From Comamonadaceae bacterium (GTDB lineage: Bacteria; Pseudomonadota; Gammaproteobacteria; Burkholderiales; Burkholderiaceae_C), in NCBI GenBank assembly GCA_947479935.1, contig CANKBG010000008.1, positions 1 through 64,000 of the forward strand: 64,000 nt of DNA, given 5' to 3'. Positions 2,770-62,446 of the stretch are shown here, one piece after another. Under the pieces are notes generated by a model. The model searched no databases. It was not told where the DNA came from and was given only the letters and a program-made list of their open reading frames with translations. A program made the position numbers and the translations under genes. The number at the start of each line of letters is the position of its first letter. Position 1 is the stretch's first letter.

Positions 2770-2786
2770 TGCACCGCAGCAGTGCA
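2770..2786. promoter_or_regulatory. NtrC-type site 1 (promoter-proximal)
   Basis: TGCACCGCAGCAGTGCA matches the NtrC dyad TGCACC-N5-GGTGCA with a single mismatch. It lies immediately upstream of the -24 element, centred roughly 40 bp from the predicted transcription start. That is closer than a normal enhancer and could modulate or limit activation. Confidence 0.65.
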
Positions 2787-2885
2787 AGTCATTGTCATCA
2801 CTCTGAAATAGTTGTTTTGAGCCCTTGGTGTTCCAATGGCAATTGCACCCCCCTAGGTCTGAGTTATAAAAAGCCTTACCGATAT

Positions 2886-2902
2886 TGCACCCCTTTGGTG
2901 CG
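2886..2902. promoter_or_regulatory. NtrC-type site 2 (enhancer position)
   Basis: TGCACCCCTTTGGTGCG matches TGCACC-N5-GGTGCA except for its last base. It is centred about 155 bp upstream of the predicted sigma-54 start, a normal enhancer distance. It also ends only 10 bp before the comM start codon, just ahead of that gene's GGAG ribosome-binding site. A weaker half-site (TGCACC at 2844-2849) lies between the two dyads. Confidence 0.7.
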
Positions 2903-2912
2903 TGGAGCAATT

Positions 2913-8510: not shown

Positions 8511-8533
8511 AACTCACCCCTTGGATCGCAGGT

Positions 8534-8629
8534 GAGCGTGGTTTGCAAAATAGGAAGGGGTCTAGCCCTTTATGAGCCCCAAGCCTGACCCGCGGCCAAT
8601 GTGGCTGGCGGGCTGCAACGCTCCTTGGG
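8534..8629 (-). promoter_or_regulatory. S-adenosylhomocysteine (SAH) riboswitch
   Basis: Read on the minus strand, CCCAAGGAGCGTTGCAG (about 8613-8629) and GGGTCAGGCTTGGGG (8577-8591) reproduce the conserved SAH-aptamer core. P1 pairs CCCAAG with CTTGGG, and P2 pairs CCCGC with GCGGG. The downstream ACGCTC (8534-8539) can form the pseudoknot with GAGCGT of the core. The element sits 24 bp before the TTG start of the distal metH half. Known SAH riboswitches turn on SAH-recycling genes such as ahcY and metH when SAH accumulates. The match is to remembered consensus; a covariance-model search would confirm it. Confidence 0.87.
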
Positions 8630-8668
8630 AATGTGCGTATTTTAACCACGCCAAAGGCGTTAGGGATA

Positions 8669-20810: not shown

Positions 20811-21637
20811 TGAACATTCAACTTCTTTCAGACCTGCATCTTGAGACGCATCCGCACTTTGTGCCTGAGGTTGCCAAAGCAGCAGACCTTCTGATCTTGG
20901 CCGGCGATATCGGCTCTTATCAGCCGGGCTCTATGTTGTTTGACCAAGAGGATTCTGATTTTGGATTGTCTCGATTCTCTCCGCGCAAAGATTTAGCGGC
21001 ATGGCCTGTGCCGGTTTTTTTTGTGCCTGGCAACCATGAGTACGACGGCATGCCCTTTGAAGAGGCGCACGCAAGACTTCAAGAAACCTGCGCACGATTG
21101 GGCATCACTTGGCTCCATCAACGCGTCCAAATATTCATGGGCGTCCGCTTTTTAGGCTGTACTTTGTGGAGTGATTTTGAAGCCTTGGTGCCCCTCAACG
21201 GGTCCCTCTCACAGCAACTCCAGGCGCGTGAAAAGGCTGAGCGTGCCGCTGATTTTTATTTGCGCAAAACAGGCACAAGCTTTCATGGCGCCCCTTTTTT
21301 ATCAGCCGAGGTTCGGCGGCAAGCACTGGCGGATCAGGCCTGGTTAGCGCAAGCTTTGTCTGCGCCTTATAACGGGCCAACGGTTGTGGTGACTCACTTT
21401 GCACCGAGCTTGAAAAGCGCTGACCCTCGGTACGGTTTCACGCCCGGCACCGCAGGGTTTTGCAATGCCTTAGACCATCTCTTGCCACACGCAACACTTT
21501 GGCTGCATGGCCATCTACATTGCGCACACGACTATGTGCACATGGGTTGTCGTGTGGTTGCCAACCCCTTGGGATATGTGCGTAAAAATGAACAGCAGGC
21601 ATTTCAGCCACAAAAAACATTGAAAGTCTCTTCTTAA
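20810..21637 (+). CDS. Metallophosphoesterase
   Basis: This is a 275-residue calcineurin-like phosphoesterase. The five metal-binding motifs are visible: SDLHLE (residues 6-11), AGDIGSY, GNHEYDG, VTHFAPS and GHLHCAHD. The start at 20810 overlaps the LysR stop codon; the longer ORF upstream lies inside the regulator gene and is rejected. The biological substrate is unknown. It converges with the TetR gene, overlapping it by 4 bp. Confidence 0.88.
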   Translation: MNIQLLSDLHLETHPHFVPEVAKAADLLILAGDIGSYQPGSMLFDQEDSDFGLSRFSPRKDLAAWPVPVFFVPGNHEYDGMPFEEAHARLQETCARLGITWLHQRVQIFMGVRFLGCTLWSDFEALVPLNGSLSQQLQAREKAERAADFYLRKTGTSFHGAPFLSAEVRRQALADQAWLAQALSAPYNGPTVVVTHFAPSLKSADPRYGFTPGTAGFCNALDHLLPHATLWLHGHLHCAHDYVHMGCRVVANPLGYVRKNEQQAFQPQKTLKVSS

Positions 21638-22320
21638 GTTGAAGTTTCTGCTGGTCGCGCGCTCAATCCTGCAAAGCAGGTGGTCATGACCATCTCAATA
21701 ATCTCTTCGTCTGTGTGTAACTCACTCATTTTCAAAAACTCAACCACCGGATCGCAGGCTCGCGCGAAGAGGGTATACAGCACAGCAATGGGCGGCAGCG
21801 AAGCGTTAATGCGCCCTTCCTTTTGGGCTTGCATAATCCATGCACCCAAAATATCACTCACCTTCATCAGACCATCCATGTAAGGACGGCTTGCCATGAG
21901 TGTGGCGCGCAAGCTGGAGTTCTGACTGGGCAAGGTGGGCATTTGTCCCGCCAGCTTAAGCTGCAAAGTCCAGCGCGTTGAGGCCATGAGTTTTCCCATC
22001 GGGCTGCTGACAGCAATGCCTGTGCTAGCGAGGCTGCCTTGTTCATTGCGCTCGGTGGGTTGATTCAACCCATCTAAAAATGCTTCTGCTTTTTGCATGG
22101 CCTGAACCATGGCGGCACAAGCCAGTGCTTCTTTGCTGCTGAAGTGCTTGTACAAACTTGCTTTGGCAATGCCAACTTCAGCGGCCACTTCATCAACCGT
22201 CATTGCATCAAAGCCTTTTTCCGAAAGCAATCGATTCACAGATGACGTGATCGCCTGCTCACGGGCCTCCAACATCTGAGTTTTGAAGGTTTTTTTCACA
22301 GGCGGGGCTGCAGTGTTCAT
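21634..22320 (-). CDS. TetR family transcriptional regulator
   Basis: This 228-residue protein has an N-terminal TetR helix-turn-helix (MTVDEVAAEVGIAKASLYKHFSSKEAL, about residues 39-65) and a helical ligand domain. The C-terminal segment LGAWIMQAQKEGRINASLPP resembles regulators of the AefR type. It is divergent from the PhoD-like gene with about 150 bp between starts, so it may control that gene or itself. The ligand is unknown. Confidence 0.88.
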   Translation of the reverse strand: MNTAAPPVKKTFKTQMLEAREQAITSSVNRLLSEKGFDAMTVDEVAAEVGIAKASLYKHFSSKEALACAAMVQAMQKAEAFLDGLNQPTERNEQGSLASTGIAVSSPMGKLMASTRWTLQLKLAGQMPTLPSQNSSLRATLMASRPYMDGLMKVSDILGAWIMQAQKEGRINASLPPIAVLYTLFARACDPVVEFLKMSELHTDEEIIEMVMTTCFAGLSARPAETST

Positions 22321-22470
22321 GGCGCTATTTTAGCGTTGGATGGCGTGATGTAAACTGTTTGGTCATAAAGTATCCGCTCAGTATATGCACAGGCTTTGCG
22401 TCTTGCTGGTGTCATACTGAATGAATCTATTTCAAAAAGTTTCACCGCTTTTAAAAGCTCAGGAGTGCAC

Positions 22471-23559
22471 GTGAACCGTCGAAATTTACTCAAAACAGGG
22501 CTTTACGGAACCTTTTGGGCGAGTCTGAGCGGCTGCGCGGAAATGGCGGGCGTAAGGGCTGACCTAGCCCCTTCAACTTCCATGCCGCCATGGCCCCAAG
22601 AAGTTCAAAAAATCATTTTTGGTTCTTGCATTGACCAAAACAAACCGCAACCCATTTGGTCGCCCATCTTGGCAGAGAAGCCCGATCTTTTTATTTTCGG
22701 GGGGGACAATGTCTATGCCAGCAACCAGCCTTGGCAACTGAGCAATTTAGAAAATGCCTATGCGACGCAAGCCGCCCAAACTGGCTTTGCCCAATTACGC
22801 AAAAACGTGCCCCACATGGCCATTTGGGATGACCATGACATGGGCATGAACGACGGTGGTGTTGAGTTCCCACACAAACAAGCAGCTAAATATGCTTTCA
22901 TGGATTTTTGGGGTCTGCCAAAGGACGATCCCAGAAGAAGTCGAGACGCTCTATACCACGCACACATCTTGGGGCCTGCTGGCAAGCGAGTACAAGTTAT
23001 TCTTCTAGACACTCGCTGGTTTAGATCACGTCTAAAAGTGACAGATCAGCGAGGCGCGCCTGGAAAAGAGCGCTACGTGCCCGACTTCGATTCTCAAAAA
23101 ACCATGCTGGGCGAGACTCAATGGCACTGGCTTGAAGCTCAATTGCGGCAGCCTGCAGAAATCCGTTTGATTGTCTCAGGCGTTCAAGTCATCGTTGAAG
23201 GACATGGCTGGGAAGGATGGGGCAACTTTCCGCAAGAGCAAGACAAATTGCGCCAACTCATTCAGCGGACAGGGGCAAACGGTGTCGTACTTTTATCTGG
23301 CGATCGTCATATCGGCGCCATCTACAAAAGCACGCGAGGCAATGGCTATCCTTTGTATGAAATCACTTCCAGCGGCATGACGCACGCATGGTCTGATGCC
23401 AAGGAACAAGGTCCCAATAGGCTAGGCGAGTTGGTGACCCAAAACCACTTTGCCCTGATTGAAATGAACTGGTCTCAACAGCGTCTTCATTTGGGGTTTA
23501 AAAACACCCAAGGCGCATGGCTGAAACAGCAGACAATTTCGCTGGCTGAATTGCAGTAA
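22471..23559 (+). CDS. PhoD-like alkaline phosphatase family lipoprotein
   Basis: This encodes a PhoD-like metallophosphatase of 362 residues. GTG at 22471 is chosen because AGGAG lies 5 bases before it and the protein then opens with NRRNLLKTG, a twin-arginine-like export signal, and a lipobox ending LSGC with the cysteine at residue 22. Family motifs are FGSCIDQ, FGGDNVYA, WDDHDMGMNDGG, LDTRWFR and LLSGDRHIG. It is therefore probably exported folded and membrane-anchored. A phosphodiester or phosphoester substrate is likely. The in-frame ATG at 22396 is a poorer start, without a signal. Confidence 0.86.
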   Translation: MNRRNLLKTGLYGTFWASLSGCAEMAGVRADLAPSTSMPPWPQEVQKIIFGSCIDQNKPQPIWSPILAEKPDLFIFGGDNVYASNQPWQLSNLENAYATQAAQTGFAQLRKNVPHMAIWDDHDMGMNDGGVEFPHKQAAKYAFMDFWGLPKDDPRRSRDALYHAHILGPAGKRVQVILLDTRWFRSRLKVTDQRGAPGKERYVPDFDSQKTMLGETQWHWLEAQLRQPAEIRLIVSGVQVIVEGHGWEGWGNFPQEQDKLRQLIQRTGANGVVLLSGDRHIGAIYKSTRGNGYPLYEITSSGMTHAWSDAKEQGPNRLGELVTQNHFALIEMNWSQQRLHLGFKNTQGAWLKQQTISLAELQ

Positions 23560-45037: not shown

Positions 45038-45682
45038 TTAAACCTCTCTTAACAAATGAACCAACTCAACGGCCGATTTAACTTCCATTTTTTCAAATAC
45101 ACGTGAGCGATGAACCTCCACGGTTCGAACACTGATGTCCAATTGGTCTGCAATCAACTTATTGGGCAAGCCTTCGACGACCAGGCGCATGACATCGCGC
45201 TCACGCTCGGTCAAGTCAGCCAGTCGCGTGACCAGGCCCGCACTTTGATGGCGAAGCGCAAGCCGCGCTTGTGATAAAGCCAGCGCTTGTTCGACACGAT
45301 CTACGAGGGCATTGTCTGAAAAGGGTTTTTCACAAAAATCAAAAGCCCCCCGTTTAACGGTGGCAACGGCTGTAGGAACATCGGCGTGACCCGTTAAAAA
45401 AATGATCGGCCACAACTGCGCTAGGCCATTCCCAATTAAGGTTTCGAATAAAGCAAGACCACTTTGACCTGGCATTCGAACGTCTAACAAGATGCAGCCA
45501 GCCTGATTAGGCGCAGGCGCGCTAGGCCCAGGAAATAGATGGTTCAGCATTTGCTCAAACGCATCTGCACTTTGGAACGACTCGCTCATGAGGCGACGCG
45601 AACGAAGCAACCACGCCATGGCATCGCGCACACCCGCATCATCATCAACAATGAAAACACAGGCGTTAAGAGCGGGTTGCAT
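45038..45682 (-). CDS. FixJ/TtrR-type response regulator
   Basis: This 214-residue two-component regulator has a receiver domain at residues 8-125, with acidic patch IVDDDAGVRD and phospho-acceptor Asp67 in LLDVRMPGQSG. The C-terminal LuxR-type HTH reads LTERERDVMRLVVEGLPNKLIADQLD. It lies 19 bp after the PAS histidine kinase gene, so the two form one system. FixJ/TtrR relatives respond to oxygen, tetrathionate or organic acids; the signal here is unknown. The neighbour downstream is the 60-residue membrane protein, convergent. Confidence 0.92.
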   Translation of the reverse strand: MQPALNACVFIVDDDAGVRDAMAWLLRSRRLMSESFQSADAFEQMLNHLFPGPSAPAPNQAGCILLDVRMPGQSGLALFETLIGNGLAQLWPIIFLTGHADVPTAVATVKRGAFDFCEKPFSDNALVDRVEQALALSQARLALRHQSAGLVTRLADLTERERDVMRLVVEGLPNKLIADQLDISVRTVEVHRSRVFEKMEVKSAVELVHLLREV

Positions 45683-51866: not shown

Positions 51867-54611
51867 ATGACCGCCGCAGAGCCGTTTGAGACGGGCAAAT
51901 TCATGGATTCAAAGCGTCAGCCACCACTCTCAGAAGGTTCTCGTTTTTTCCAACGTCTTCAAAGGCGATATTCCGATGTCTTTGCGACGTTGCCGACCGG
52001 TATCCCCCAGCGCGAATTATTGAATCAGGCGTATACAACGTTGCGGCAACAGGGGCACGATGTGGGCCCGGCACTGCGCATCTTGCGCCAATGGGCCATG
52101 GCCCAGTTTCTCAGCTTAGATTGTGAGAAAAATGCTGCGCTTGAATCCATCACTCTGGGTGTCACGCACTTGGCAGAGCTGGCCTTGGATGAAGCGTGCA
52201 AGCAGGCCTTCGCAGACCTCGATGTGCGTCATGGCGCCCCGTTGACCGCATTGGGGGAAAGAGCTCAGTTTTGGGTGGTTGGGATGGGCAAACTAGGTGC
52301 TCGCGAGTTGAATGTTTCCAGCGACATCGATCTTATTTACGTTTATGACGAAGATGGCGAAACGGCGGGCAACGCACAAGGGTTGGGCAAAGTTTCAGTC
52401 CAAGAATATTTCAGTCGTGCGGTCAAGGCGATCTATACCCTTGTGGGAGAGACGACTGAGCATGGGTTTGTTTTTCGCGTAGATTTGGCATTGCGACCCA
52501 ATGGCAACTCTGGTCCCAGTGTGTTGTCTCTGGGCGCTTTAGAAGAATATTTGCTGGTTCAAGGCCGAGAGTGGGAGCGCTTTGCTTGGATGAAAAGCCG
52601 AGTCATTGCCCCCCGAAGCGCCATTCAAAACGGGACGGCCGCCAAGCTTCGCAGCGTGGTCCTGCCGTTTGTGTTCCGGCGTTATTTGGACTACAACGTT
52701 TTTGAATCGCTGCGGACCTTGCACCAACAAATTCGAGATCATGCGGCGAAGCGAAGTGCCGGGCACCCAGAGCGTGCCAATGATGTCAAGTTGTCCCGTG
52801 GCGGTATTCGTGAAATTGAATTTACGGTGCAACTGTTGCAAGTGGTGCGCGGCGGGCAGTTTCCCGAGCTGCGGACCCGGCCGACCTTGGATGCGTTAAA
52901 GCGTGTGGCCAAGGCAGGGGTGATGCCACCAGAAACGGCAGAGGCTTTGTCTAATGCCTATGTTTTTTTGCGCAAGGTAGAACACCGCATTCAGTATTTG
53001 GACGATCAGCAAACCCATGTGCTCCCCACCCAAGACGGAGATATGCAGTGGATTGCACTCACCATGGGCTATGCCGAGAGCTCAGAATTCTTAACTGATC
53101 TGGACAAACATCGCGAAGTGGTGGCTCACGAATTTGACATTCTTTTGGGCGGCGACCGAGAATGCAAGGGCTGTCAAACAAAGGGTGCGCGAGAAAGGCC
53201 AGAGTTAGAGGCGGTGTTGGATTTGTTTGAGGGCGAGGCCAGGGCGCGTTTGGCGCATTGGCAAGACAGCCCCAAGGTGAAAAGTCTTCGCGATGATGCG
53301 CGGGCACGGTTGATGCGTCTGTTGCAACGCACCGCACAGTGGCTACAAGAGGGACGCGTGGAAGAGGTTGCGGTTGTGAGAATGGCCGATTGGATGGAGC
53401 CACTGATGCGCCGAGAAAGCTATCTGGCCATGATGCTAGAGCGACCCGCGGTGCATGAGCGCTTGCTCCGCTTGCTGGGTGCTGCCAGATGGCCAGCCCG
53501 CTATCTGGTTCAGCATCCTGGCGTGATTGATGAGTTGGCAAATGGAGACGTGCTGAAGCAGCGGTTTGTAGCCAAAGACTTTGAAGCAGAACTTCAAGCC
53601 CGTAGGGCGGCGTTAGTGAGAACTGGCGAAGACGACGAGGAAACTTTGTTGAACTTGCTGCGACGCGCGCACCACGCCGAAGTTTTTCGCACCCTCGCAC
53701 GCGATGTCGAGGGGCGCTTGAGCGTGGAGCAGGTGGCCGATGACTTGAGTGCCATGGCCGATGCGGTGCTCCGTGTGACGGCGCAGTGGTGTTGGTCGTA
53801 TTTAAAGAATCGGCACCGTGAAGCGCCTCAACTGGCCATCATTGCCTACGGCAAACTGGGCGGCAAGGAGTTGGGGTATGGCAGTGATTTGGACATTGTT
53901 TTTGTCTACGAAGACGCCGATGAACGCGCCCAAGAGGCCTATGCTTCCTTTGTCAGAAAGCTGATCAATTGGTTCACCCTCAAAACGGCAGAAGGCGACT
54001 TATTTGAAATTGACACCGCCCTTCGGCCTAACGGCAGCTCAGGTTTGTTGGTAACCACTTTCGACGCCTATGCCGACTATCAACAACAGCGAGGAAGTAA
54101 CACGGCTTGGACATGGGAGCATCAGGCCATGACCCGGGCTCGATTGGTCATGGGCGATGAGCCCATGAAGCGCCGATTTGACCAAGTCAGGCACGCGGTG
54201 ATTGGTGCCGTTCGGGGTGGGGCTGCGTTGAAGTTAGAAATTGTGAACATGCGAAATCGGGTTCGCAGCGCCCACTTGGTTAAACCCGAGTTCTTTGACG
54301 TCAAACACAGCCCTGGTGCCATGGTGGATGCCGAGTTTGCAGTCCAATATTTGGTCCTAATGCACACGGCCGCGCACCCAGAAATGGCCGAGAACGTGGG
54401 CAATATTGCCCTTCTTCAAAGAGCCGAAGCAGTGGGCTTACTGCCCCAAGGTGTGGGGCAGTCAGCTGCGACTGCCTACCGGGAGCTTCGCCGAGTTCAG
54501 CACAAGGCCAGGTTGAATGAGGAGCCGACCCAAGTCCATTTGCCTGCCTTACAAGCCGAAAGGGCCGCGGTTCTGGCTTTGTGGCAAGCCGTATTTCCAA
54601 CGACGCCTTGA
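51867..54611 (+). CDS. glnE: Bifunctional glutamine synthetase adenylyltransferase/deadenylase
   Basis: GlnE adenylylates and deadenylylates glutamine synthetase and is governed by PII and glutamine. The 914-residue protein has two nucleotidyltransferase domains. The deadenylase site is VVGMGKLGARELNVSSDIDL (about residues 137-157), and the adenylylase site is IAYGKLGGKELGYGSDLDIVF (near residue 660). Each is followed by a helical domain. The ATG has AGGGA five bases upstream. Length fits the family (946 in E. coli). GlnK and AmtB are encoded at the other end of the window, so the window contains three elements of one nitrogen circuit. Confidence 0.95.
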   Translation: MTAAEPFETGKFMDSKRQPPLSEGSRFFQRLQRRYSDVFATLPTGIPQRELLNQAYTTLRQQGHDVGPALRILRQWAMAQFLSLDCEKNAALESITLGVTHLAELALDEACKQAFADLDVRHGAPLTALGERAQFWVVGMGKLGARELNVSSDIDLIYVYDEDGETAGNAQGLGKVSVQEYFSRAVKAIYTLVGETTEHGFVFRVDLALRPNGNSGPSVLSLGALEEYLLVQGREWERFAWMKSRVIAPRSAIQNGTAAKLRSVVLPFVFRRYLDYNVFESLRTLHQQIRDHAAKRSAGHPERANDVKLSRGGIREIEFTVQLLQVVRGGQFPELRTRPTLDALKRVAKAGVMPPETAEALSNAYVFLRKVEHRIQYLDDQQTHVLPTQDGDMQWIALTMGYAESSEFLTDLDKHREVVAHEFDILLGGDRECKGCQTKGARERPELEAVLDLFEGEARARLAHWQDSPKVKSLRDDARARLMRLLQRTAQWLQEGRVEEVAVVRMADWMEPLMRRESYLAMMLERPAVHERLLRLLGAARWPARYLVQHPGVIDELANGDVLKQRFVAKDFEAELQARRAALVRTGEDDEETLLNLLRRAHHAEVFRTLARDVEGRLSVEQVADDLSAMADAVLRVTAQWCWSYLKNRHREAPQLAIIAYGKLGGKELGYGSDLDIVFVYEDADERAQEAYASFVRKLINWFTLKTAEGDLFEIDTALRPNGSSGLLVTTFDAYADYQQQRGSNTAWTWEHQAMTRARLVMGDEPMKRRFDQVRHAVIGAVRGGAALKLEIVNMRNRVRSAHLVKPEFFDVKHSPGAMVDAEFAVQYLVLMHTAAHPEMAENVGNIALLQRAEAVGLLPQGVGQSAATAYRELRRVQHKARLNEEPTQVHLPALQAERAAVLALWQAVFPTTP

Positions 54612-54666
54612 GCGGGCAGGCGACGGCTTCACGGTGTCGTGACAAGCCGATCAATTAGAAGTAAAC

Positions 54667-54676
54667 TGACCGGTCA
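54667..54676. promoter_or_regulatory. Palindrome upstream of the glutathione peroxidase operon
   Basis: TGACCGGTCA is a perfect 10-bp palindrome 21 bp before the first start codon of the nine-gene operon. It is placed where an operator could act. No regulator is assigned. Confidence 0.3.
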
Positions 54677-54697
54677 CAAAACAGAACGGACAGTTCA

Positions 54698-55297
54698 ATG
54701 ATTAATTTCAACGCGATGCGATGTTTAGCAATGTTCGCTGCGATCTTGCTGGGCCCATCTTCAGGGGCGCAAACATTGCCCACGCCTGCAACGTCTGCAC
54801 AGTCTGGCGCATGTCCCGTGTTGCTGAACCATACCTTTCCAAGGTTGCAAGATGAAAAGCCACAGTCACTGTGCCAATTCAGTGGCAAGGTAATTTTGGT
54901 CGTGAACACTGCCAGTTATTGTGGATTTACGCCCCAATACAAAGGACTAGAAGCCATTTATAGCAAATACAAAGATCGTGGCTTGGTGGTCTTGGGTTTT
55001 CCATCCAATGATTTTGCGCAAGAAAAAACCAGCAACCAAGACATCGCCGACTTTTGCGAAAACACATTTGGCGTGAAGTTTCCAATGTTTACCAAAACTG
55101 CGGTGACAGGTGATGCTGCTGTCCCGTTTTTTAAGCAGTTGGCGCAAGACCCAGGCCAAAGACCCAAGTGGAACTTTTACAAGTATCTGATTGGACGAGA
55201 CGGCAAATTAATCGACAGCTACAGCAGCATGACGGGGCCAGATAGCAAAAGCTTGGTTCAGGCGATTGAAAAAAATCTGGCAATGAAAGCCCTTTGA
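54698..55297 (+). CDS. Glutathione peroxidase family protein, exported
   Basis: This 199-residue thiol peroxidase has an N-terminal signal peptide (cleavage near GAQ, residue 25). It contains the GPx active site VVNTASYCGFTPQY with Cys75 and the WNFYKYL motif with the conserved Trp and Asn. The usual catalytic Gln of the CNQF motif is replaced by Asp105 (FPSNDF), a variant I remember from other proteobacterial secreted GPx. It should reduce organic hydroperoxides in the periplasm. It is the first gene of the operon, 35 bp before the flavin oxidoreductase. Confidence 0.88.
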   Translation: MINFNAMRCLAMFAAILLGPSSGAQTLPTPATSAQSGACPVLLNHTFPRLQDEKPQSLCQFSGKVILVVNTASYCGFTPQYKGLEAIYSKYKDRGLVVLGFPSNDFAQEKTSNQDIADFCENTFGVKFPMFTKTAVTGDAAVPFFKQLAQDPGQRPKWNFYKYLIGRDGKLIDSYSSMTGPDSKSLVQAIEKNLAMKAL

Positions 55298-55314
55298 AAT
55301 TCTTTCGAGAATTT
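55297..55314 (+). other. UUCG-loop hairpin between the peroxidase and oxidoreductase genes
   Basis: AAATTCT and AGAATTT form a perfect 7-bp stem capped by TTCG, starting at the last base of the peroxidase stop codon. No T run follows, so it is unlikely to be a terminator. It could protect or divide the mRNA. Confidence 0.35.
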
Positions 55315-55332
55315 AGTTAAGCGAGCATCATC

Positions 55333-56628
55333 TTGATCTACAAAAAGATTGCTGTTGTTGGTTCTGGGATCTCGGGCTTGGCCGTGGCACACAGCCTCAA
55401 AGGGCAGGCAGATGTGACCCTGTTTGAAGCGGGCAGCTATTTTGGCGGCCACGCCAACACGGTTGACATCACATTGGCAACCGGAAGCGGCCCAGTGACC
55501 TATGGGGTGGACACGGGCTTTTTGGTATTCAACGAAAGAACCTACCCCAACCTGATTAACTTGTTTGCAGAACTGGGCGTTGAAACAGCGCTGTCAGATA
55601 TGTCGTTTTCAGTCTTGGCGCCCAAAGCTTGGGGGAATGAGTCTTTGGAGTGGAGTGGCAGCAATTTAGACACGGTATTTGCACAACGCAAAAACTTAAT
55701 ACGTCCTCAATTTCTAAAGATGTTGGCAGATGTCTTGCGCTTTAACGCGCTGTGCACACGCCTTGCAGAAAATCAGGCAGAAAAAGAAATGCGTCAGCCT
55801 CTTTCGGCGTTTTTGAAGCAACATAACTTCAGCGAAGCCTTCAAGAATTGGTACTTTTTGCCCATGATGGGGTGTATTTGGAGTTGTCCAACAGATCAAA
55901 TGCTTGAGTTTCCTGTGGCCACCATGATTCGGTTTTGTCACAACCATGGCCTGATTCAAGTGAGCAACCGACCCAGATGGTTCACGGTTCTAGGTGGATC
56001 GAGAAACTATGTTGAAAAAATGCTCAAGGACTTGCCGAACAAGCGTTTAAATACCCCCGTGCAATTGATCGAAAGAGATGCAGACGGCGTAAGGGTCATG
56101 ACGAAAAACCATGCCGAGAGATTTGATGAGGTGGTGCTTTGTACTCACTCAGATCAAGCGCTTCGCATGCTAGGCGCACCCTCAGAAGTGGAAACTCAAC
56201 TGTTGTCAGCCATACGATATCAAGACAACGTGGCGGTGCTTCACACCGATGATTCGGTATTGCCCTCGAGGCGCAAAGCGTGGGCTGCTTGGAACTACGA
56301 AAGAGCAGAAGATGACAACCAAGAAAGCACCAGAGTCTGCTTGCACTATTTACTGAACAAACTGCAGCCTTTGCCCTATGAACAGGCGGTGGTGGTTTCT
56401 TTAAACCCCCTAAAAGCCATTGACAAGGCAAAAGTCATCCAGACCATTGACTATGCGCATCCGGTGTTTGATTTGGCCGCCATGGATGCACAGCAAAAAA
56501 TGCATCAAATTCAAGGCCGCCAACATACGTGGTATGCAGGCGCATGGCTCGGCTACGGCTTCCACGAGGACGGCTTGAAGTCTGGGTTGTCGGTGGCCAG
56601 GGAGTTGCTGCTCAAGGTGAACGCATGA
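55333..56628 (+). CDS. FAD/NAD(P)-dependent oxidoreductase (flavin amine oxidase type)
   Basis: This 431-residue flavoprotein has a dinucleotide fold at the N-terminus (IAVVGSGISGLAVAHSL and VTLFEAGSYFGGHANT) and a substrate domain (GVDTGFLVFNERTYPNL, GCIWSCPTDQMLEFP). It starts with TTG; no ATG is near. In other bacteria this protein is encoded next to DUF1365 and Cfa-like genes and takes part in making modified, for example furan-containing, fatty acids. Its stop overlaps the DUF1365 start by 4 bp (ATGA). The precise reaction is unknown for this organism. Confidence 0.88.
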   Translation: MIYKKIAVVGSGISGLAVAHSLKGQADVTLFEAGSYFGGHANTVDITLATGSGPVTYGVDTGFLVFNERTYPNLINLFAELGVETALSDMSFSVLAPKAWGNESLEWSGSNLDTVFAQRKNLIRPQFLKMLADVLRFNALCTRLAENQAEKEMRQPLSAFLKQHNFSEAFKNWYFLPMMGCIWSCPTDQMLEFPVATMIRFCHNHGLIQVSNRPRWFTVLGGSRNYVEKMLKDLPNKRLNTPVQLIERDADGVRVMTKNHAERFDEVVLCTHSDQALRMLGAPSEVETQLLSAIRYQDNVAVLHTDDSVLPSRRKAWAAWNYERAEDDNQESTRVCLHYLLNKLQPLPYEQAVVVSLNPLKAIDKAKVIQTIDYAHPVFDLAAMDAQQKMHQIQGRQHTWYAGAWLGYGFHEDGLKSGLSVARELLLKVNA

Positions 56629-57464
56629 CCTACTCGGGCGTGCTCATCGGACATGGCCAAGTTCGCCATGTGCGCTTGCGCCCCACCTGTCATGCGTTTA
56701 ACTACCCCGCCTACTTCATGCTGTTGCCCATGCGGCAATTGAACAAACAGAAGACATCGCTGGGTCATAACGCAAACAAAAATGACATCAGTTTGCCCAT
56801 GAATCGATGGGGCCTCTTGTCTTTTTATGATATTGACCATGGCGATGGTCGAGCCGCGGCAAACGGCGGCGCATTGGCTTGGTTAGAGGAACTGCTGGCG
56901 AGTGAAAGCATTCTAGATGCCGACGGCGAAGTGTGGCTGCAAACATTTCCCCGCGTGTTGGGCTATACCTTTAAGCCCGTGAGCTTTTGGTATTGCCACC
57001 GCGCAGACAACTCGCTGGCCGCCATTGTGGCGGAGGTGCACAACACCTTTGGCGAGCGACACTGCTATTTGCTGCCTCAACCGAAATTTGGCCGCACAGA
57101 ATTTGCAAGCAAGGTGTTCCATGTTTCGCCATTTTGTGAAGTCACGGGCGAGTACAGGTTTAGATTCATGCGGACAGTGCTCAAGGGTGTCGAGCGCATG
57201 GTGGCGAGAGTGGACCACGATGATCAGGAAGGACCCCTCATTCAAACCAGCATCAGTGGTCAACTGGTGCCAGCCACGCGCCTAGAAATTTATCGCACGC
57301 TTTGGCAATACCCGTTTTTTACATTTGCCGTCATGTTCCGCATTCATTGGCACGCTTTGTTGTTGTGGCTTAAAAAAGTGCCTTTTTTTAGCAAGCCTCA
57401 ACCGCCCCTTCAACTTGTCTCACGCGGACAAACGCCTTCCGCAGCCACTTCAAAAATTAGTTGA
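56625..57464 (+). CDS. DUF1365 domain-containing protein
   Basis: This 279-residue member of DUF1365 starts at 56625 with AAGGTGA upstream, overlapping the preceding stop. Signatures are VRHVRLRPTCHAFNYPAYFM at the N-terminus, LQTFPRVLGYTFKPVSFWYCH, and a hydrophobic segment near residues 235-255 (YPFFTFAVMFRIHWHALLLW). The family nearly always sits between a flavin oxidoreductase and a Cfa-like methyltransferase and is thought to act in fatty-acid modification at the membrane, but its biochemistry is not settled. The genes on both sides overlap or touch it. Confidence 0.9.
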   Translation: MTYSGVLIGHGQVRHVRLRPTCHAFNYPAYFMLLPMRQLNKQKTSLGHNANKNDISLPMNRWGLLSFYDIDHGDGRAAANGGALAWLEELLASESILDADGEVWLQTFPRVLGYTFKPVSFWYCHRADNSLAAIVAEVHNTFGERHCYLLPQPKFGRTEFASKVFHVSPFCEVTGEYRFRFMRTVLKGVERMVARVDHDDQEGPLIQTSISGQLVPATRLEIYRTLWQYPFFTFAVMFRIHWHALLLWLKKVPFFSKPQPPLQLVSRGQTPSAATSKIS

Positions 57465-57466
57465 TC

Positions 57467-58690
57467 ATGAATAGCACCACCCCTACGAACGCTTCGTTTG
57501 AAATTCAATCTGCACCCATGGCTGTGCGCCGAGTTTTGCAATTGCTTGAGAAAATTGAGCACGGCACCATCACCATGCAGTTTCCAGACCGTAGCAGCAA
57601 AGTTTTTGGGAACGGCGCTTTGCCTCACGCTGCGATGAGTTTGCGCAATTGGCATGTTTTTTCTGCAAGCATGAAATCAGGCGACATTGGTTTTGCAGAG
57701 TCGTACATTGCCGGCGATTGGAGTACGCCTTCCTTGAGTGACCTGCTGCGCGTCATGATTCAAAATAGACGGGCCGTTGAAGATTTGATTTACGGCTCTT
57801 GGTGGGGACAAATGGTGTACCGCGTGCGGCATCTCATGAACCGAAATCACAAGACCAATAGCCGCAAGAACATTCATGCCCACTACGATCTAGGCAATGC
57901 TTTTTATGAGTTGTGGTTAGACGGCACCATGAACTATTCCTCGGCACTGTTTGAAAATGACCACACACAAAGCATGGGCGATGCACAGCGCGCCAAAGTG
58001 AGACGCGCTTTGCGCATGACCGATGTGGGACTGGGTGCGCGTGTTTTAGAAATTGGCTGCGGTTGGGGCGCATTGGCAGAAATGGCCACCCTGGATTTTG
58101 GCGCAAGCGTCACGGGCGTGACGTTGTCTACCGAGCAATTGGCATTTGCCAAAGCCCGCATGAAATGGAATGGAAAATCAGAGAAAACCGACTTGCGCTT
58201 GCAAGATTATCGAGATATCAATGATGGCCCCTACGATGCCATCTGCTCCATTGAAATGATTGAAGCCGTGGGCAAAGAATATTGGCCCACTTATTTCCAA
58301 ACCGTCAGCAAGCTGTTAAAGCCTGGCGGCAAAGCATGCATCCAGAGCATTGTGATTGACGATGCTTTGTTTGAGCGCTATTTGAAGTCAACTGACTTTA
58401 TTCAGCAATATATTTTCCCAGGGGGCTGCTTGCCCAGCCCCTCCGAATTTAGAAAGCAGGCGGGCTTGGCGGGCTTGGAAGTCATTGATGAACTGAACTT
58501 TGGTCCCGATTACGCCGAAACCTTGCGCCGCTGGCGCCACGACTTCATGGCGCAAGAGACCCAAGTTTTGGCGTTGGGCTTTGATGCTAAATTCATTCGC
58601 GTCTGGGAGTTTTATTTGGCATATTGCGAAGCGGCGTTTGATGAAGCCAATACCGATGTGATTCAGTTCACATTGCAAAAAAGCAACTGA
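57467..58690 (+). CDS. Cyclopropane-fatty-acyl-phospholipid synthase family methyltransferase
   Basis: This 407-residue AdoMet-dependent enzyme (409 from the TTG at 57461) methylates or cyclopropanates unsaturated acyl chains in phospholipids. Visible are the N-terminal domain with SGDIGFAESYIAGDW, the AdoMet motif VLEIGCGWGALAEMA, HYDLGNAFYELWLDGTMNYSSALF, the CSIEMIEAVG block and QQYIFPGG. ATG at 57467 is 3 bp after the DUF1365 stop. In the sigmaE-ChrR type cluster the Cfa-like member makes modified fatty acids rather than ordinary cyclopropanes, so I use only the family name. Confidence 0.9.
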   Translation: MNSTTPTNASFEIQSAPMAVRRVLQLLEKIEHGTITMQFPDRSSKVFGNGALPHAAMSLRNWHVFSASMKSGDIGFAESYIAGDWSTPSLSDLLRVMIQNRRAVEDLIYGSWWGQMVYRVRHLMNRNHKTNSRKNIHAHYDLGNAFYELWLDGTMNYSSALFENDHTQSMGDAQRAKVRRALRMTDVGLGARVLEIGCGWGALAEMATLDFGASVTGVTLSTEQLAFAKARMKWNGKSEKTDLRLQDYRDINDGPYDAICSIEMIEAVGKEYWPTYFQTVSKLLKPGGKACIQSIVIDDALFERYLKSTDFIQQYIFPGGCLPSPSEFRKQAGLAGLEVIDELNFGPDYAETLRRWRHDFMAQETQVLALGFDAKFIRVWEFYLAYCEAAFDEANTDVIQFTLQKSN

Positions 58691-58691
58691 C

Positions 58692-59228
58692 ATGAAAAAC
58701 CATTTGCGCAGACGGCATTTGCTTTTGGGCGGCGCTCTGGTCATTTTATTTGCGACTTTCGCGGCGCAAGGCAGCCAGGCGCTTTTGCCTGGCGCGAAGC
58801 CTTCTAGCGTTCAGCGATTGAATATTTGGGGCTTTGACGTCTATGACGTGCGATTGTGGTCGCAAGCGGGATTTAATATTCAACAATACACCGACCATCC
58901 CTTCGTCTTAGAAATTTCCTATCTAAGAAATTTTGAAGGCCCAACGATTGCCAAGAGATCGATTGAAGAAATGCGAAGGGTCGGCCCTTTCTCGGCAAAT
59001 CAAGAGGGCATCTGGCTGAAGGCGATGTCCGACATTTTCCCAAACGTGGGCAAGGGGGATCGGTTGTGGGGCGTATACAAACCCAATGAAGGCGTTGAGT
59101 TTTGGTCGAACCAACGACGAGTGGGCAGCTTGCAAGACCCACATTTTGGAAAATTGTTTTTTGGTATTTGGTTGCACGAGTCAACATCAGCACCCGCGAT
59201 CAGACAAGCCTGGATGAATGGCTTATGA
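58692..59228 (+). CDS. Chalcone isomerase-like protein
   Basis: This 178-residue protein resembles the chalcone-isomerase-like domain (PF16036): an N-terminal signal or anchor (RRHLLLGGALVILFATFAAQG), then LNIWGFDVYDVRLWSQAGF and LEISYLRNFEGPTIAKRS. Such proteins usually bind fatty acids, and family members in bacteria have no proven enzyme activity. It starts 1 bp after the methyltransferase stop and overlaps the MFS start by 4 bp. Its presence inside the lipid-modification operon fits a role as a fatty-acid carrier or accessory protein; this is inference. Confidence 0.82.
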   Translation: MKNHLRRRHLLLGGALVILFATFAAQGSQALLPGAKPSSVQRLNIWGFDVYDVRLWSQAGFNIQQYTDHPFVLEISYLRNFEGPTIAKRSIEEMRRVGPFSANQEGIWLKAMSDIFPNVGKGDRLWGVYKPNEGVEFWSNQRRVGSLQDPHFGKLFFGIWLHESTSAPAIRQAWMNGL

Positions 59229-60523
59229 ACGATCAGCTGCTTGTCAATCATCGAATGAGTTTTTCTTACGGCCTGCTGGCATTGCCCTTGGCTTTTGTGG
59301 CGTTGCCGATGTATGTGAATTTGCCTCACTACTATGCCACTCAATTTGCCATCCCGCTTGCCAGCTTGGGTGCAGTGCTTTTGGCCAGTCGGTTGATTGA
59401 TGCTTTTGTCGACCCATGGATGGGACGTGTGAGCGATGCCTTGTATGGTCAATCTGTCAAGGCAGTCATGTTGGCGGCCAGTGTTTTATGCTTTTTGTTG
59501 ATGATTTCATTTGCGCTGTTATTTTTTCCGCCCGCATTTTCAAGCACCCTTCCTTATGTGCTTTGGGTTGCCGTTTGCGTCACCTTTTGTCATTTGAGCT
59601 ACAGCGGCCTCAGCATCTTGCATCAAGCGTGGGCCACGCGCTTGGGGGGCGGGCCGGTGCAACAAAGCCGCGTTGTGACTTGGCGTGAAGGTGCCGGGCT
59701 GGTGGGCGTTGTCACAGCTTCAGTCCTACCCGCATTGGCGGGTTGGCCGCTCACCACGCTGGTGCTGAGTGTCATGTTGTTGTTAGGACTGCTGGCATGG
59801 TTTGGTGTGTTGCAAAAATCAAGGGCAAAGACAGAACTTGTGAATGCCGCGCCTCTCAAGGCAGAGACGTGGCTGCCGATGCAGCAAGCACTGTTTGTCA
59901 AACTGCTGCTGGTCTTTTTATTGAATGGTATTGCCAGTGCCGTGCCTGCGAGCTTGGTGATGTTTTTTGTAGAAGACCAGATTCGCGCTACTGCTGAAGT
60001 GGCGCCTTGGTTCTTGGGCGTATATTTTTTATCAGGCGCGCTTTCCTTGCCACTGTGGTTGTGGTTGGTACGAACGCAGGGGCTACCAAGGGCTTGGGGT
60101 TATGGCATGGTCTTGGCCGTGGTGAGTTTTGTCTGGGTGAGTTTTTTGGGCGCTGGCGATGAGGTGCCTTTTCTTTGGGTCTGCATTGCGTCAGGCGTGG
60201 CTTTGGGCGCAGACCTGGTGGTGCCTGCAGCCTTGCTTAACCGAGTGATTGATTCGCTGGGTCATCGGGGCCATGCTGAAGGCCTCTATTTGGGCTGGTG
60301 GAACCTGACCAGCAAATTTAATTTGGCGCTGTCTGCAGGTCTCTGTTTACCCCTGCTTTCATTTTGGGGGTATACACCGGGTGTGCAAAGTGAAGAGGGC
60401 CTGAGAGCTTTGTCGCTGGCCTATGGCGTCCTTCCTTGTGTTTTAAAACTTGCCGCTTTGGCGGCATTGTTTGTATTTTGGATTCAACCATCGGCAAGCT
60501 TGCCGGCATCTAGGAGTCAGTGA
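59225..60523 (+). CDS. MFS transporter, glycoside/pentoside-type (GPH-like)
   Basis: This 432-residue 12-helix permease begins at 59225 (MNDQLLVNHRMSFSYGLLAL), overlapping the preceding stop by 4 bp; the ORF extension upstream is rejected. The loop VDPWMGRVSDALYGQSVKAV is the MFS loop 2-3 signature in the MelB/GPH style. Homologues occur in sigmaE-ChrR type clusters, where they may move lipid precursors. The cargo is not known. Confidence 0.85.
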   Translation: MNDQLLVNHRMSFSYGLLALPLAFVALPMYVNLPHYYATQFAIPLASLGAVLLASRLIDAFVDPWMGRVSDALYGQSVKAVMLAASVLCFLLMISFALLFFPPAFSSTLPYVLWVAVCVTFCHLSYSGLSILHQAWATRLGGGPVQQSRVVTWREGAGLVGVVTASVLPALAGWPLTTLVLSVMLLLGLLAWFGVLQKSRAKTELVNAAPLKAETWLPMQQALFVKLLLVFLLNGIASAVPASLVMFFVEDQIRATAEVAPWFLGVYFLSGALSLPLWLWLVRTQGLPRAWGYGMVLAVVSFVWVSFLGAGDEVPFLWVCIASGVALGADLVVPAALLNRVIDSLGHRGHAEGLYLGWWNLTSKFNLALSAGLCLPLLSFWGYTPGVQSEEGLRALSLAYGVLPCVLKLAALAALFVFWIQPSASLPASRSQ

Positions 60524-61137
60524 TGAACCGACGTTTATGGTTGCAAAATGCAGCCCACAGAATGAGTGCCCCGCTTTGGTTGCGAGCCGGTGCCGTGGCG
60601 GGCGCCACTGGCAGTGTGCTTGCGCTCTCAGGTTGTGCAGGGCCGCAAGTGACGGATCATGCGCAACAGATGCCGCCGTTAGATCTGCGAACTTATTTCA
60701 ACGGCATGGTGGACGCGTGGGGCGTTTTTACCGATCGGAGTGGCCGCGTTGTGAAAAGGTTCACCGTGGTCATGGATTGCAAATGGCAAGGCGATGAGGG
60801 GGTACTCGATGAAGCCTTCACGTACTCGGACGGCACGCTACAACGCCGAATATGGCGACTTAAGGCCTTGGCTCAAGGCCGCTATGAAGGCCGCGCGGAC
60901 GATGTGGTGGGCATGGCCGCGGGTCAAACCAGTGGCAATGCGTTTCGCTGGCAATACACCTTGGCATTGCCAGTGGACGGCTCGGTATGGCACGTGCAGT
61001 TTGACGATTGGATGTATTTGATGGACGACCGTGTGATGCTGAACAAAGCCGTCATGAGCAAACTGGGTGTGACCTTGGGTGAGGTGACTTTGTCATTTAC
61101 GCGTCGAACGCCCCTCTCTGGAGGCGCTTCGTCATGA
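60523..61137 (+). CDS. DUF3833 family lipoprotein
   Basis: This 204-residue protein has an N-terminal signal with Arg pair (NRRLW) and a lipobox ending LALSGC at cysteine 38. The mature domain contains FNGMVDAWGVFTDRSGRVVKRF, VLDEAFTYSDGTLQRRIWRL and WHVQFDDWMYLMDDRVMLNKA. DUF3833 members are regular parts of the singlet-oxygen and lipid clusters. TAGGAG is 7 bases before the ATG at 60523, which shares its first base with the MFS stop. No reaction is known. Confidence 0.85.
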   Translation: MNRRLWLQNAAHRMSAPLWLRAGAVAGATGSVLALSGCAGPQVTDHAQQMPPLDLRTYFNGMVDAWGVFTDRSGRVVKRFTVVMDCKWQGDEGVLDEAFTYSDGTLQRRIWRLKALAQGRYEGRADDVVGMAAGQTSGNAFRWQYTLALPVDGSVWHVQFDDWMYLMDDRVMLNKAVMSKLGVTLGEVTLSFTRRTPLSGGASS

Positions 61138-62009
61138 GCTTGCAGGCCATCAAAGCGGCGCAACCTGAAACGGCCGTCACACCCGCACGGTCGATACTGG
61201 CAATACCCGTCAAACGTCGGTGGGGCGAGCCTCTGAATTTACCGATTCGCAATTGGCAGGGTAAGCGGGTCTGGCTTGTGGGTGCCTCCAGCGGAATTGG
61301 CTTGGCTTGCGCCAAGGCTTTGCAGGCTGACGGTGCGGTGGTGATTGTGTCTGCGCGTGACCTCGGTGCACTTTCAGAATGGTCTGAGAATTGCAAACAT
61401 CAAGGACGCCCCGTTGAGCTTAAGGCGTTGGATGTGACTGACGAGTTGCAAGTTAAAAGCGTTGCAACACAAATTGCGGCGGCAGGCGCATTGGACCTTC
61501 TGCTTTACTGCGCCGGCCACTACCGAGCACAACGCGGCACGGACTTTGATTTGAAAGACATGCTGCGCCATCAAGATGTCAATTACAACGGCTTGTTGCG
61601 TGTGCTCAATGCGGCATTGCCTTTGTTTTTGCAACAAGGTTTTGGACACATCAGCTTGGTCAGCAGTGTGGCGGGTTGGCGCGGGCTGCCCAATGGTTTG
61701 GCCTATGGCCCCACCAAGGCAGCCGTCACGCATTTGGCGGAAACCTTGTACATGGATCTGCAAGACAGGGGCATCGGCGTGAGCGTGATCAATCCTGGTT
61801 TTGTGGCCACCCCACTGACGGCGCAAAATAATTTTCAAATGCCAGCCTTGATCTCTCCCGAAACCGCTGCCAATGCCATGTTGGCGGGCTGGGCCGAGGG
61901 CTTGTTTGACATTCACTTTCCCAAGCGGTTTACGCTGTGGTTGAAGTTGCTTCGCCTTCTCCCCTATCGAATTTATTTCGCATTGGTGCGAAAATTTACT
62001 GGACTTTGA
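61134..62009 (+). CDS. SDR family NAD(P)-dependent oxidoreductase
   Basis: This short-chain dehydrogenase has 291 residues with a 40-residue leader. The cofactor motif is VWLVGASSGIGLACAKAL, the Asn-Ala-Gly-like motif is LLLYCAGHY, and the catalytic Ser and Tyr-x3-Lys are in SLVSSVAGWRG and LAYGPTKAAV. GGAGG precedes its ATG, which overlaps the DUF3833 stop by 4 bp. The substrate is likely a fatty-acid derivative, given the neighbours. Confidence 0.92.
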   Translation: MSLQAIKAAQPETAVTPARSILAIPVKRRWGEPLNLPIRNWQGKRVWLVGASSGIGLACAKALQADGAVVIVSARDLGALSEWSENCKHQGRPVELKALDVTDELQVKSVATQIAAAGALDLLLYCAGHYRAQRGTDFDLKDMLRHQDVNYNGLLRVLNAALPLFLQQGFGHISLVSSVAGWRGLPNGLAYGPTKAAVTHLAETLYMDLQDRGIGVSVINPGFVATPLTAQNNFQMPALISPETAANAMLAGWAEGLFDIHFPKRFTLWLKLLRLLPYRIYFALVRKFTGL

Positions 62010-62011
62010 TC

Positions 62012-62446
62012 ATGAGCCAGCGACAGCAATTTGCACAAATTGCCACCTACTTTGAAACGCTGACGCCTCAAAGCGTGGACCATTTGAAAACCTTTTACAG
62101 CCCGACGGCACGCTTCAAGGACCCCTTTAACGAGGTAGAAGGTATTGCTGACATCGAGCGCATTTTTAAGCACATGTATGTGGCGCTCGACAACCCCCGT
62201 TTTGTCATCACCGAACAAGTGGTTGATGGCCGTCAAGCATTTTTAACTTGGGAATTTAGATTCAGATTCAAACGCTTTGAGACGCGCACAGAGCAAGTGG
62301 TGTTGGGCACCAGTCACTTGGTTTTGAATGAACACAATCTCATTGACCTGCACCGAGATTATTGGGATGCAGCAGAGGAGCTTTATGAAAAGCTGCCTTG
62401 GGTGGGCAGTTTGATGCGTTGGCTGAAAAAGCGGGCGAACGCTTAA
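62012..62446 (+). CDS. NTF2-like (SnoaL-type) protein
   Basis: This 144-residue protein has the cone-shaped NTF2-like fold (YFETLTPQSVDHLKTFYSPTARFKDPFNEVEGIADIERIF, LHRDYWDAAEELYEKLPWVG). It starts 2 bp after the SDR stop at 62012; the longer ORF extending upstream lies in the SDR gene. The family includes enzymes and binding proteins. Its cognates are in the same lipid cluster in other genera. It is the last gene of the operon and converges with the GST gene. Confidence 0.85.
   Translation: MSQRQQFAQIATYFETLTPQSVDHLKTFYSPTARFKDPFNEVEGIADIERIFKHMYVALDNPRFVITEQVVDGRQAFLTWEFRFRFKRFETRTEQVVLGTSHLVLNEHNLIDLHRDYWDAAEELYEKLPWVGSLMRWLKKRANA

What the first reader, a model, noticed from the sequence alone, without database searches (positions are those of the whole stretch)
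54698..62446. Nine-gene lipid-modification operon led by a peroxidase, without an adjacent sigmaE-ChrR pair
Flavin oxidoreductase, DUF1365, Cfa-like enzyme, MFS, DUF3833, SDR and NTF2-like genes resemble the clusters that sigmaE-ChrR turns on under singlet-oxygen stress, linked in Rhodobacter to furan-type fatty acids. Here they overlap by 4 bp or abut almost throughout, and start with an exported glutathione peroxidase. No ECF sigma or anti-sigma gene is adjacent. It looks like a complete oxidative membrane-repair or remodelling system in a freshwater betaproteobacterium with unknown control.
Basis: partly seen in the sequence, partly recalled or inferred. Interest (0 to 1): 0.72.

Follow-up and report, generated by a model that had tools for sequence, protein, structure and literature searches.

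The report
Likely TetR-controlled furan lipid operon
A bacterium carries a nine-gene set that probably builds protective furan fats in its membrane, and comparison with related genomes points to an unstudied repressor gene 32 kb away as its switch, in place of the known stress and light switches.

Summary
The nine ORFs are there as described, tightly packed. They are a known kind of cluster: relatives of the furan-fatty-acid enzymes UfaD (FAD), UfaO (DUF1365) and UfaM (CFA-like), with Chalcone_3, MFS_2, DUF3833, SDR and SnoaL_2 genes, headed in this genus by a probably exported glutathione peroxidase. No ChrR was found in the genome (93.8% complete), none over cut-off in 60 genus genomes, and no ECF11-type promoter.

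The 'unknown control' has a strong candidate. In 26 genus relatives the peroxidase promoter keeps a sigma70-type layout overlapped by AAACTGNNCNGTCACAAAA (0-2 mismatches). A TetR gene in the window (21634-22320, minus) has a related site upstream. In 15 near-relative genomes the exact pattern occurs 20 times, the reversed control 0; all 20 lie at the operon (13) or tetR (7). In 78 of 79 other loci a TetR relative sits divergently beside ufaD.

Against: operators of those adjacent TetRs do not predict the window's sites, and the own tetR site is weak. Product, ligand and inducer are untested. New variant of a known kind.

The parts
54639..54667 (+). sigma70-type promoter of the operon: GTGACA (54639-54644), 17 bp, TAAACT (54662-54667)
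   Evidence: same register in the alignment of 26 genus relatives; GTGACA exact in 23 of 26 (L048, L053, L077 differ by one base)
54663..54681 (+). predicted TetR operator AAACTGACCGGTCACAAAA overlapping the -10 box; inner perfect palindrome TGACCGGTCA 54667-54676
   Evidence: 0-2 mismatches to AAACTGNNCNGTCACAAAA in all 26 relatives; top hit in the window with a PWM built without the window
54698..55297 (+). glutathione peroxidase (gpx), probably exported, operon head
   Evidence: PF00255 E 8e-31; signal-peptide-like N-terminus (by eye; no predictor run); first gene of the operon in 26 of 26 genus loci mapped
55333..56628 (+). FAD/NAD-binding amine-oxidase-type protein, UfaD-like
   Evidence: PF01593, PF13450; 40% identical to the FAD gene beside sigma-ChrR on a Qingshengfaniella plasmid
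56625..57464 (+). DUF1365 protein, UfaO-like
   Evidence: PF07103 E 2.8e-75; UfaO carries DUF1365 (PMC7380195 passage)
57467..58690 (+). CFA-like SAM methyltransferase, UfaM-like
   Evidence: PF02353 E 2.7e-82; Ser and Gln at the positions of E. coli CFA Cys139 and His266
58692..59228 (+). chalcone-isomerase-like protein, probably exported
   Evidence: PF16036 E 9e-7; signal-peptide-like N-terminus (by eye)
59225..60523 (+). MFS_2 / GPH-type transporter
   Evidence: PF13347 E 2e-47
60520..61137 (+). DUF3833 protein, lipoprotein-like
   Evidence: PF12915 E 1.1e-67; lipobox-like LSGC (by eye)
61134..62009 (+). short-chain dehydrogenase
   Evidence: PF00106 E 5.9e-40
62012..62446 (+). SnoaL_2 / NTF2-like protein, last gene
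   Evidence: PF12680 E 1.6e-14
21634..22320 (-). TetR-family regulator, proposed repressor of the operon and of itself
   Evidence: PF00440; 42% identical to the TetR divergent from ufaD in L068; match in 54 of 60 genus genomes; AF2 model pLDDT 85.6 with TetR fold
22352..22370 (+). second predicted TetR site AAACTGTTTGGTCATAAAG, upstream of tetR
   Evidence: second-best PWM hit in the window (18.2 bits; third 16.9, inside another gene); the site at -49 to -52 of tetR is the best hit of the whole locus in 13 of 13 near-subclade loci that hold the upstream sequence, own included

Best explanation
The cluster is a furan-fatty-acid-type (ufa) lipid-modification operon with a probably exported Gpx at its head. 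Shown by sequence: one conserved sigma70-type promoter in front of gpx, a palindromic site over its -10 box, a related site upstream of a TetR gene about 32 kb away, and TetR relatives placed divergently beside ufaD in other Betaproteobacteria. Inferred: the TetR dimer binds both sites and blocks RNA polymerase; a lipid-derived or oxidation-derived ligand releases it; UfaM methylates cis-vaccenoyl phospholipid, UfaD desaturates it, UfaO closes the furan with O2, and Gpx reduces peroxides in the envelope.
For: Enzyme families match those sufficient for 9M5-FuFA synthesis (PMC7380195 sections and passages). Gene order conserved in the genus. Promoter and site conserved in the window and 26 relatives. 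PWM from those 26, window left out: best hit in the window is the operon, second the tetR upstream region; in 13 of 13 near-subclade tetR loci with upstream sequence (own included) the best hit of the whole locus lies at -49 to -52 of tetR. 20 exact sites in 15 near-relative genomes, reversed control 0; 13 at gpx and 7 at tetR. Core motif within 90 bp of tetR in 22 of 28 loci against 54 of 8754 control windows. TetR beside ufaD in 78 of 79 loci with upstream sequence; all 80 TetR-ufaD intergenic regions (those 78 plus L063 and L068) hold TAC-N6-GTA, shuffled mean 3.4. Recognition helix and site differ together: GIAKASLYKHF in 28 of 28 genus loci, GISKPSLYKHF in 73 of 75 matched elsewhere.
Against: A PWM of the ufa-adjacent operators ranks the window's operon site only 190th and the tetR region 33rd by a different stretch; of 26 genus operon sites 6 rank first and 13 in the top five. 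In the far subclade the operon PWM puts its best hit upstream of tetR in only 3 of 15 loci, and the core motif is missing upstream of tetR in 6 of 28 loci. In the own genome the tetR site is weak: a site inside a kinase gene on the same contig scores higher (22.3 bits, PWM with the window site), and at up to 3 mismatches sites are no commoner than the reversed control, 22 against 21. The pattern was written from the operon and near-subclade tetR sites, and the own tetR site does not match it exactly. Nothing shows binding, induction or the lipid. I did not compare with the tested R. sphaeroides or R. palustris proteins.
Confidence: 0.75

Rival explanations
1. The operon is run by a sigmaE-ChrR pair encoded elsewhere in the genome (singlet-oxygen regulon).
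For: Same gene families as the sigmaE-ChrR clusters; a Rhodobacterales plasmid has sigma-ChrR divergent from FAD-DUF1365-MFS with TGATC-N17-CGTA in both directions.
Against: No ChrR in the own genome at E up to 10; 0 of 60 genus genomes over the cut-off, and the weak hits in 39 lie from model position 79 on, without the N-terminal part; the one ECF-like sigma gene lies beside DUF3106-type neighbours (by eye); no TGATC-N15-20-CGTA in 54400-54699, both strands. The assembly is 93.8% complete.
Confidence: 0.05
2. A B12/light-type MerR regulator (LitR) controls it.
For: LitR-like genes lie in 10 of 14 operon loci from other families (8 at 40% identity or more, the query L070 counted); in Pseudomonas class II LitR proteins control ufaM (PMC9758184 passages); the own genome has a LitR-like gene on contig C65.
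Against: Not linked here; no T(G/A)TACA half site in 54400-54699; the conserved promoter site is a different palindrome.
Confidence: 0.07
3. The shared site belongs to another, unidentified regulator that controls both tetR and the operon.
For: Binding by this TetR is inferred; the ufa-adjacent operators do not score the site well.
Against: In 15 genomes the exact pattern is found at these two promoters only, as expected of a self-regulating local repressor; TetR relatives are ufaD neighbours.
Confidence: 0.1
4. The enzymes make ordinary cyclopropane or only methyl-branched fatty acids, not furan fatty acids.
For: The methyltransferase is in the CFA superfamily; the lipid product is unknown.
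Against: Its presumed bicarbonate ligands are changed: the His266 position is Gln in 113 of 113 and the Cys139 position Ser or Ala in 111 of 113 operon homologues with that column (the ligand list is recalled); ufaD-ufaO-cfa stand together in all 40 operon loci.
Confidence: 0.2

Closest known systems
Rhodobacter sphaeroides RSP1087-1091 with ufaM (RSP2144), under sigmaE-ChrR
   Same: NAD/FAD-binding UfaD, DUF1365 UfaO, CFA-like UfaM (PMC7380195)
   Different: There ufaM lies apart from the operon; here it is inside, gpx heads the operon, Chalcone_3 and SnoaL_2 genes are added, no sigmaE-ChrR was found, and a TetR-type site lies over the promoter
Pseudomonas pplR1/pmlR1 light-inducible cluster under class II LitR
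   Same: ufaM, an FAD oxidoreductase and an SDR in one light-inducible region (PMC9758184 passages)
   Different: MerR-type box T(G/A)TACA-N12-TGTA(C/T)A there, with a photolyase gene nearby; the box was not found here
Vibrio cholerae blue-light response (ChrR/SigmaE and MerR)
   Same: A CFA-like gene, VC1122, is up-regulated by blue light; ChrR/SigmaE are VC2301-2302 (PMC5241685 passages)
   Different: Promoter TGATC-N18-CGTAT there; sigma70-type promoter with TetR-type site here. The passages did not say whether VC1122 itself needs ChrR
TetR-ufaD divergent clusters of Herbaspirillum, Duganella, Chromobacterium, Cupriavidus and others (found here)
   Same: TetR relative with ufaD-ufaO-cfa and most of chi-mfs-d3833-sdr-ntf2
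   Different: TetR adjacent; TACT-N4-AGTA in 56 of 80 intergenic regions; no gpx found in the stretches held

Membership tests
Furan fatty acid (ufa) biosynthesis operon | CFA-like SAM methylase, NAD/FAD-binding UfaD and DUF1365 UfaO encoded together | tested here: met
   Pfam hits for all three, adjacent
Furan fatty acid (ufa) biosynthesis operon | Orthology to the experimentally tested RSP1090, RSP1091, RSP2144 or RPA2569-2571 | not tested
   Those sequences were not fetched; only a Rhodobacterales plasmid relative was compared (UfaD-like 40%, UfaO-like 36%)
Furan fatty acid (ufa) biosynthesis operon | Makes 11Me-12t-18:1 and a furan fatty acid | not testable with these tools
   needs lipid analysis
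Canonical cyclopropane fatty acid synthase | Cys139 and His266 of E. coli CFA (bicarbonate ligands, recalled) | tested here: not met
   Ser and Gln in the window protein; Gln in 113 of 113 homologues with that column
sigmaE-ChrR (ECF11) regulon | rpoE-chrR in the genome | tested here: not met
   TIGR02451: 0 hits in own genome; PF12973: one 127-aa stand-alone cupin; 93.8% complete assembly
sigmaE-ChrR (ECF11) regulon | TGATC-N15-20-CGTA promoter | tested here: not met
   absent in 54400-54699, present both ways in the control L237
LitR-controlled light regulon | LitR adjacent and T(G/A)TACA-N12-TGTA(C/T)A upstream | tested here: not met
   no match upstream; LitR-like gene only on contig C65
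TetR-family autoregulated repressor | TetR_N domain and TetR fold | tested here: met
   PF00440; model and Foldseek
TetR-family autoregulated repressor | Shared palindromic site at own and target promoters | tested here: met
   near subclade; weaker in the own genome and in the far subclade
TetR-family autoregulated repressor | Operator of the ufa-adjacent TetR relatives matches the window site | tested here: inconclusive
   inner ACT-N4-AGT shared with many genus sites, outer pair differs; the PWM fails
TetR-family autoregulated repressor | Binds the site and is released by a ligand | not testable with these tools
   needs protein and DNA

The most novel reading that the evidence does not exclude
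A cluster-specific TetR has replaced sigmaE-ChrR and LitR as the switch of the furan-fatty-acid operon in a large part of the Betaproteobacteria, and senses an oxidised lipid, or the furan or methylated acyl product itself, directly. In this genus it runs a closed two-promoter regulon (itself and gpx-ufa) from about 32 kb away, pairing an exported lipid-peroxide reductase with the antioxidant lipid.
Probability: 0.35. Interest if true: 0.75.

Novelty: new variant of a known kind. Interest (0 to 1): 0.55.

Why it matters
Furan fatty acids protect cells from singlet oxygen, and the papers I saw put their bacterial genes under sigmaE-ChrR (PMC7380195, PMC6852236) or LitR (PMC9758184). The comparison here points to a third, unrelated regulator for the same operon in Betaproteobacteria, and to a peroxidase joined to it in one genus. 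It turns 'unknown control' into one deletion and one gel shift, and makes the question of what signal calls for furan lipids testable with a small ligand-binding protein. A parallel exists in the alga Chlamydomonas, where the table of SAK1-dependent singlet-oxygen genes includes CFA1, CFA2, a DUF1365 gene and GPX5 (PMC4067076 passages).

Tried and rejected
ECF11 sigma and ChrR were looked for in the own genome and the genus and rejected. The Sigma70_r4_2 hit at 45038-45682 was rejected as a sigma factor by Pfam. LitR was considered because it is near the operon in many other families; no box was found here. A hairpin in the gpx-ufaD gap of the window is not conserved in relatives, so no internal promoter is argued. 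Other genome hits of the operator pattern with 2-3 mismatches were treated as chance because the reversed control gave nearly the same number (22 against 21); 4 of these 20 other places were looked at and all lie inside ORFs (kinase, sugar-kinase-like and PhoH-like by eye; FMN oxidoreductase); 16 were not looked at. The PWM of ufa-adjacent operators was expected to find the window site and did not. Solved-structure searches and Foldseek gave only the general TetR fold for the regulator; FadR-type acyl-CoA regulators are among the better matches, but this does not discriminate. Paper searches for TetR control of such clusters showed none in the rows listed: 25 of 6,609 papers; 15 of 602; 3 of 3; 10 of 687; 10 of 101; 15 of 428. 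Most subscription papers are not held, so this is no proof of absence. Papers: PMC7380195 outline, sections 4 and 8 and passages; PMC6852236 outline and sections 15 and 16; PMC5241685, PMC9758184, PMC12089945 and PMC4067076 passages only; all others seen in search listings only.

Counts and dropped rows: one search covered 80 genomes, 60 with a DUF1365 match: 45 of 48 in the genus (own included), 15 of 32 outside. I fetched stretches for 26 of the 44 other genus genomes with a match and 14 of the 15 outside (G077 left out). Counts upstream of tetR use 28 of the 30 loci fetched (54 genomes had a match); L109 and L111 end too near the gene. Of 80 named TetR loci, L209 has no upstream sequence and L218 has no ufaD in what is held. 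TAC-N6-GTA was the best of all 3- and 4-base half sites with spacers 0-8 that I counted in the same regions. The 15 genomes were picked as the near subclade plus G034; G020 and G034 had no site. The related genomes are not independent of each other. Signal peptides, lipobox and several neighbour genes were named by eye.
Full report
Observation. Pfam names them GSHPx, Amino_oxidase/NAD_binding_8, DUF1365, CMAS, Chalcone_3, MFS_2, DUF3833, adh_short and SnoaL_2. The N-termini of gpx and the Chalcone_3 gene look like signal peptides and DUF3833 has a lipobox-like LSGC (by eye; no predictor was run).

What the operon is. UfaO carries DUF1365, UfaD a predicted NAD-FAD-binding domain, and UfaM is a SAM-dependent fatty acyl methylase; the three R. 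palustris genes suffice for the monomethyl furan fatty acid in an R. sphaeroides triple mutant, and RSP1087-1089 are not needed for it (PMC7380195). All three types are adjacent here. The CFA-like protein keeps the residues at E. coli CFA positions E239, I268 and Y317 but has Ser and Gln at Cys139 and His266. Over 114 operon homologues, Gln is found in 113 of 113 with that column, Ser or Ala in 111 of 113. That these are bicarbonate ligands in CFA is recalled. This favours a UfaM-type over a cyclopropane-forming enzyme. I did not compare with the tested proteins themselves; the nearest test is 40%, 36%, 31% and 40% identity to the FAD, DUF1365, MFS and SDR genes around a sigma-ChrR pair on a Qingshengfaniella plasmid.

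Distribution. DUF1365 matches are in 45 of 48 genus genomes and 15 of 32 from other families of the order. The nine genes keep their order in 25 of the 26 genus loci mapped; glnE and gst-purB flank them in the closest ones. Outside the genus the peroxidase is mostly absent: of 14 loci it directly precedes ufaD in L061, lies upstream in L064 and L067, and lies downstream in L071. None of the 80 TetR loci showed gpx in the stretch held. So gpx as operon head marks this genus, with linkage recurring in a few other families.

No sigmaE-ChrR. TIGR02451 gave nothing in the own genome at E up to 10, and none of 60 genus genomes passed its cut-off; 39 had weak hits, all from model position 79 on. PF12973 in the own genome is one 127-aa stand-alone cupin. 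Of eight Sigma70_r4_2 hits, one looks like an ECF sigma with DUF3106-type neighbours, two like FliA, the rest like response-regulator or LuxR outputs (by eye except the window one). The promoter region has no TGATC-N15-20-CGTA, while the plasmid control has one in each direction.

The promoter. Aligned upstream of gpx, the window and 26 relatives share the register GTGACA (exact in 23 of 26), 17 bp, TAAACT-like, overlapped by AAACTGNNCNGTCACAAAA with 0-2 mismatches. The three non-genus gpx loci lack it (6-7 mismatches).

The regulator. In two other families a TetR gene is divergent from ufaD (L063, L068). The own genome's best match to it, 42% at E 4e-39 with the next at 2e-5, is in the window itself at 21634-22320. 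It is found in 54 of 60 genus genomes and in 3 of 32 other-family genomes, two of them the ufaD neighbours and one, G059, on another contig than the operon. Its upstream region carries a form of the operon motif. A PWM built without the window ranks the operon site first (30.8 bits) and the tetR site second (18.2) in 64 kb; the third (16.9) is inside another gene, and on the next 20 kb of the contig a site inside a kinase gene scores 22.3 with the full PWM, so the own site alone would not convince. The relatives do: in 13 of 13 near-subclade loci with upstream sequence (own included) the best hit of the whole locus is at -49 to -52 of tetR. In the far subclade this holds in 3 of 15. The looser core RACY-N4-RGTM is within 90 bp of tetR in 22 of 28 loci against 54 of 8754 control windows of the same loci. 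Across 15 genomes, chosen as the near subclade plus G034, the exact pattern ACTGNNCNGTCAYAAAA has 20 places, its reversed control none, and all 20 are at gpx (13) or tetR (7). The pattern was written from such sites; the test is that it is found nowhere else. G020 and G034 have none, and the own tetR site is not an exact match.

Relatives elsewhere. A scan with the TetR alignment kept the best 80 named loci (Herbaspirillum, Duganella, Undibacterium, Chromobacterium, Cupriavidus, Chitinibacter and others). 78 of 79 with upstream sequence have TetR divergent from ufaD at 97-303 bp. All 80 intergenic regions (78 plus L063 and L068) hold TAC-N6-GTA, against 3.4 by shuffling, and TACT-N4-AGTA occurs in 56. 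Chromobacterium L228, for one, holds ACTGATCAGT, the same ten letters as many genus operon sites. Still, the PWM of these operators places the window's operon site 190th. The outer base pair differs, and so does the recognition helix, GIAKASLYKHF in 28 of 28 genus loci against GISKPSLYKHF in 73 of 75. Joint change is a plausible reading, not a proof.

Mechanism. Inferred: TetR represses both promoters, at the operon by covering the -10 box. A ligand frees it. The enzymes then convert phospholipid acyl chains to a furan form that protects from singlet oxygen, as in Rhodobacter, and Gpx removes peroxides in the envelope. The ligand is unknown; the fold search shows only a general TetR fold.

Verdict. 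The operon is a known kind. Its TetR switch, encoded about 32 kb from the operon in this genome, and the peroxidase head are a new variant. The searches named in Tried and rejected listed no paper on TetR control of such a cluster.

Noticed in passing
L092:4652-5587 (own genome contig C65): LitR-like MerR protein with B12-binding domains, near a second B12-binding protein (2643-3506) with a weak AppA_SCHIC match; not linked to the operon.
   Followed up: partly
window 8527-8632 (minus): SAH riboswitch (Rfam RF01057, 44 bits) just upstream of a 918-aa minus-strand ORF at 5754-8510.
   Followed up: no
own genome L003 and L006: Two proteins that look like FliA-type sigma factors (by eye) on different contigs of a small genome.
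   Followed up: no
window 22396-23559 (plus): PhoD-like phosphatase divergent from tetR in most near-relative loci; in L103 (G012) it is missing and the TetR site is still there, so the site goes with tetR. The gene could be co-controlled where present.
   Followed up: partly
L234 (G059): TetR relative (43%) on another contig than the operon, in a genome whose operon lies near a LitR-like gene: possible double control.
   Followed up: no
L060-L073 and L237: The neighbourhood of ufaD holds different regulators: LitR-like in 10 of 14 loci, TetR in 2, neither in L061 and L066; sigma-ChrR in the plasmid locus L237.
   Followed up: partly
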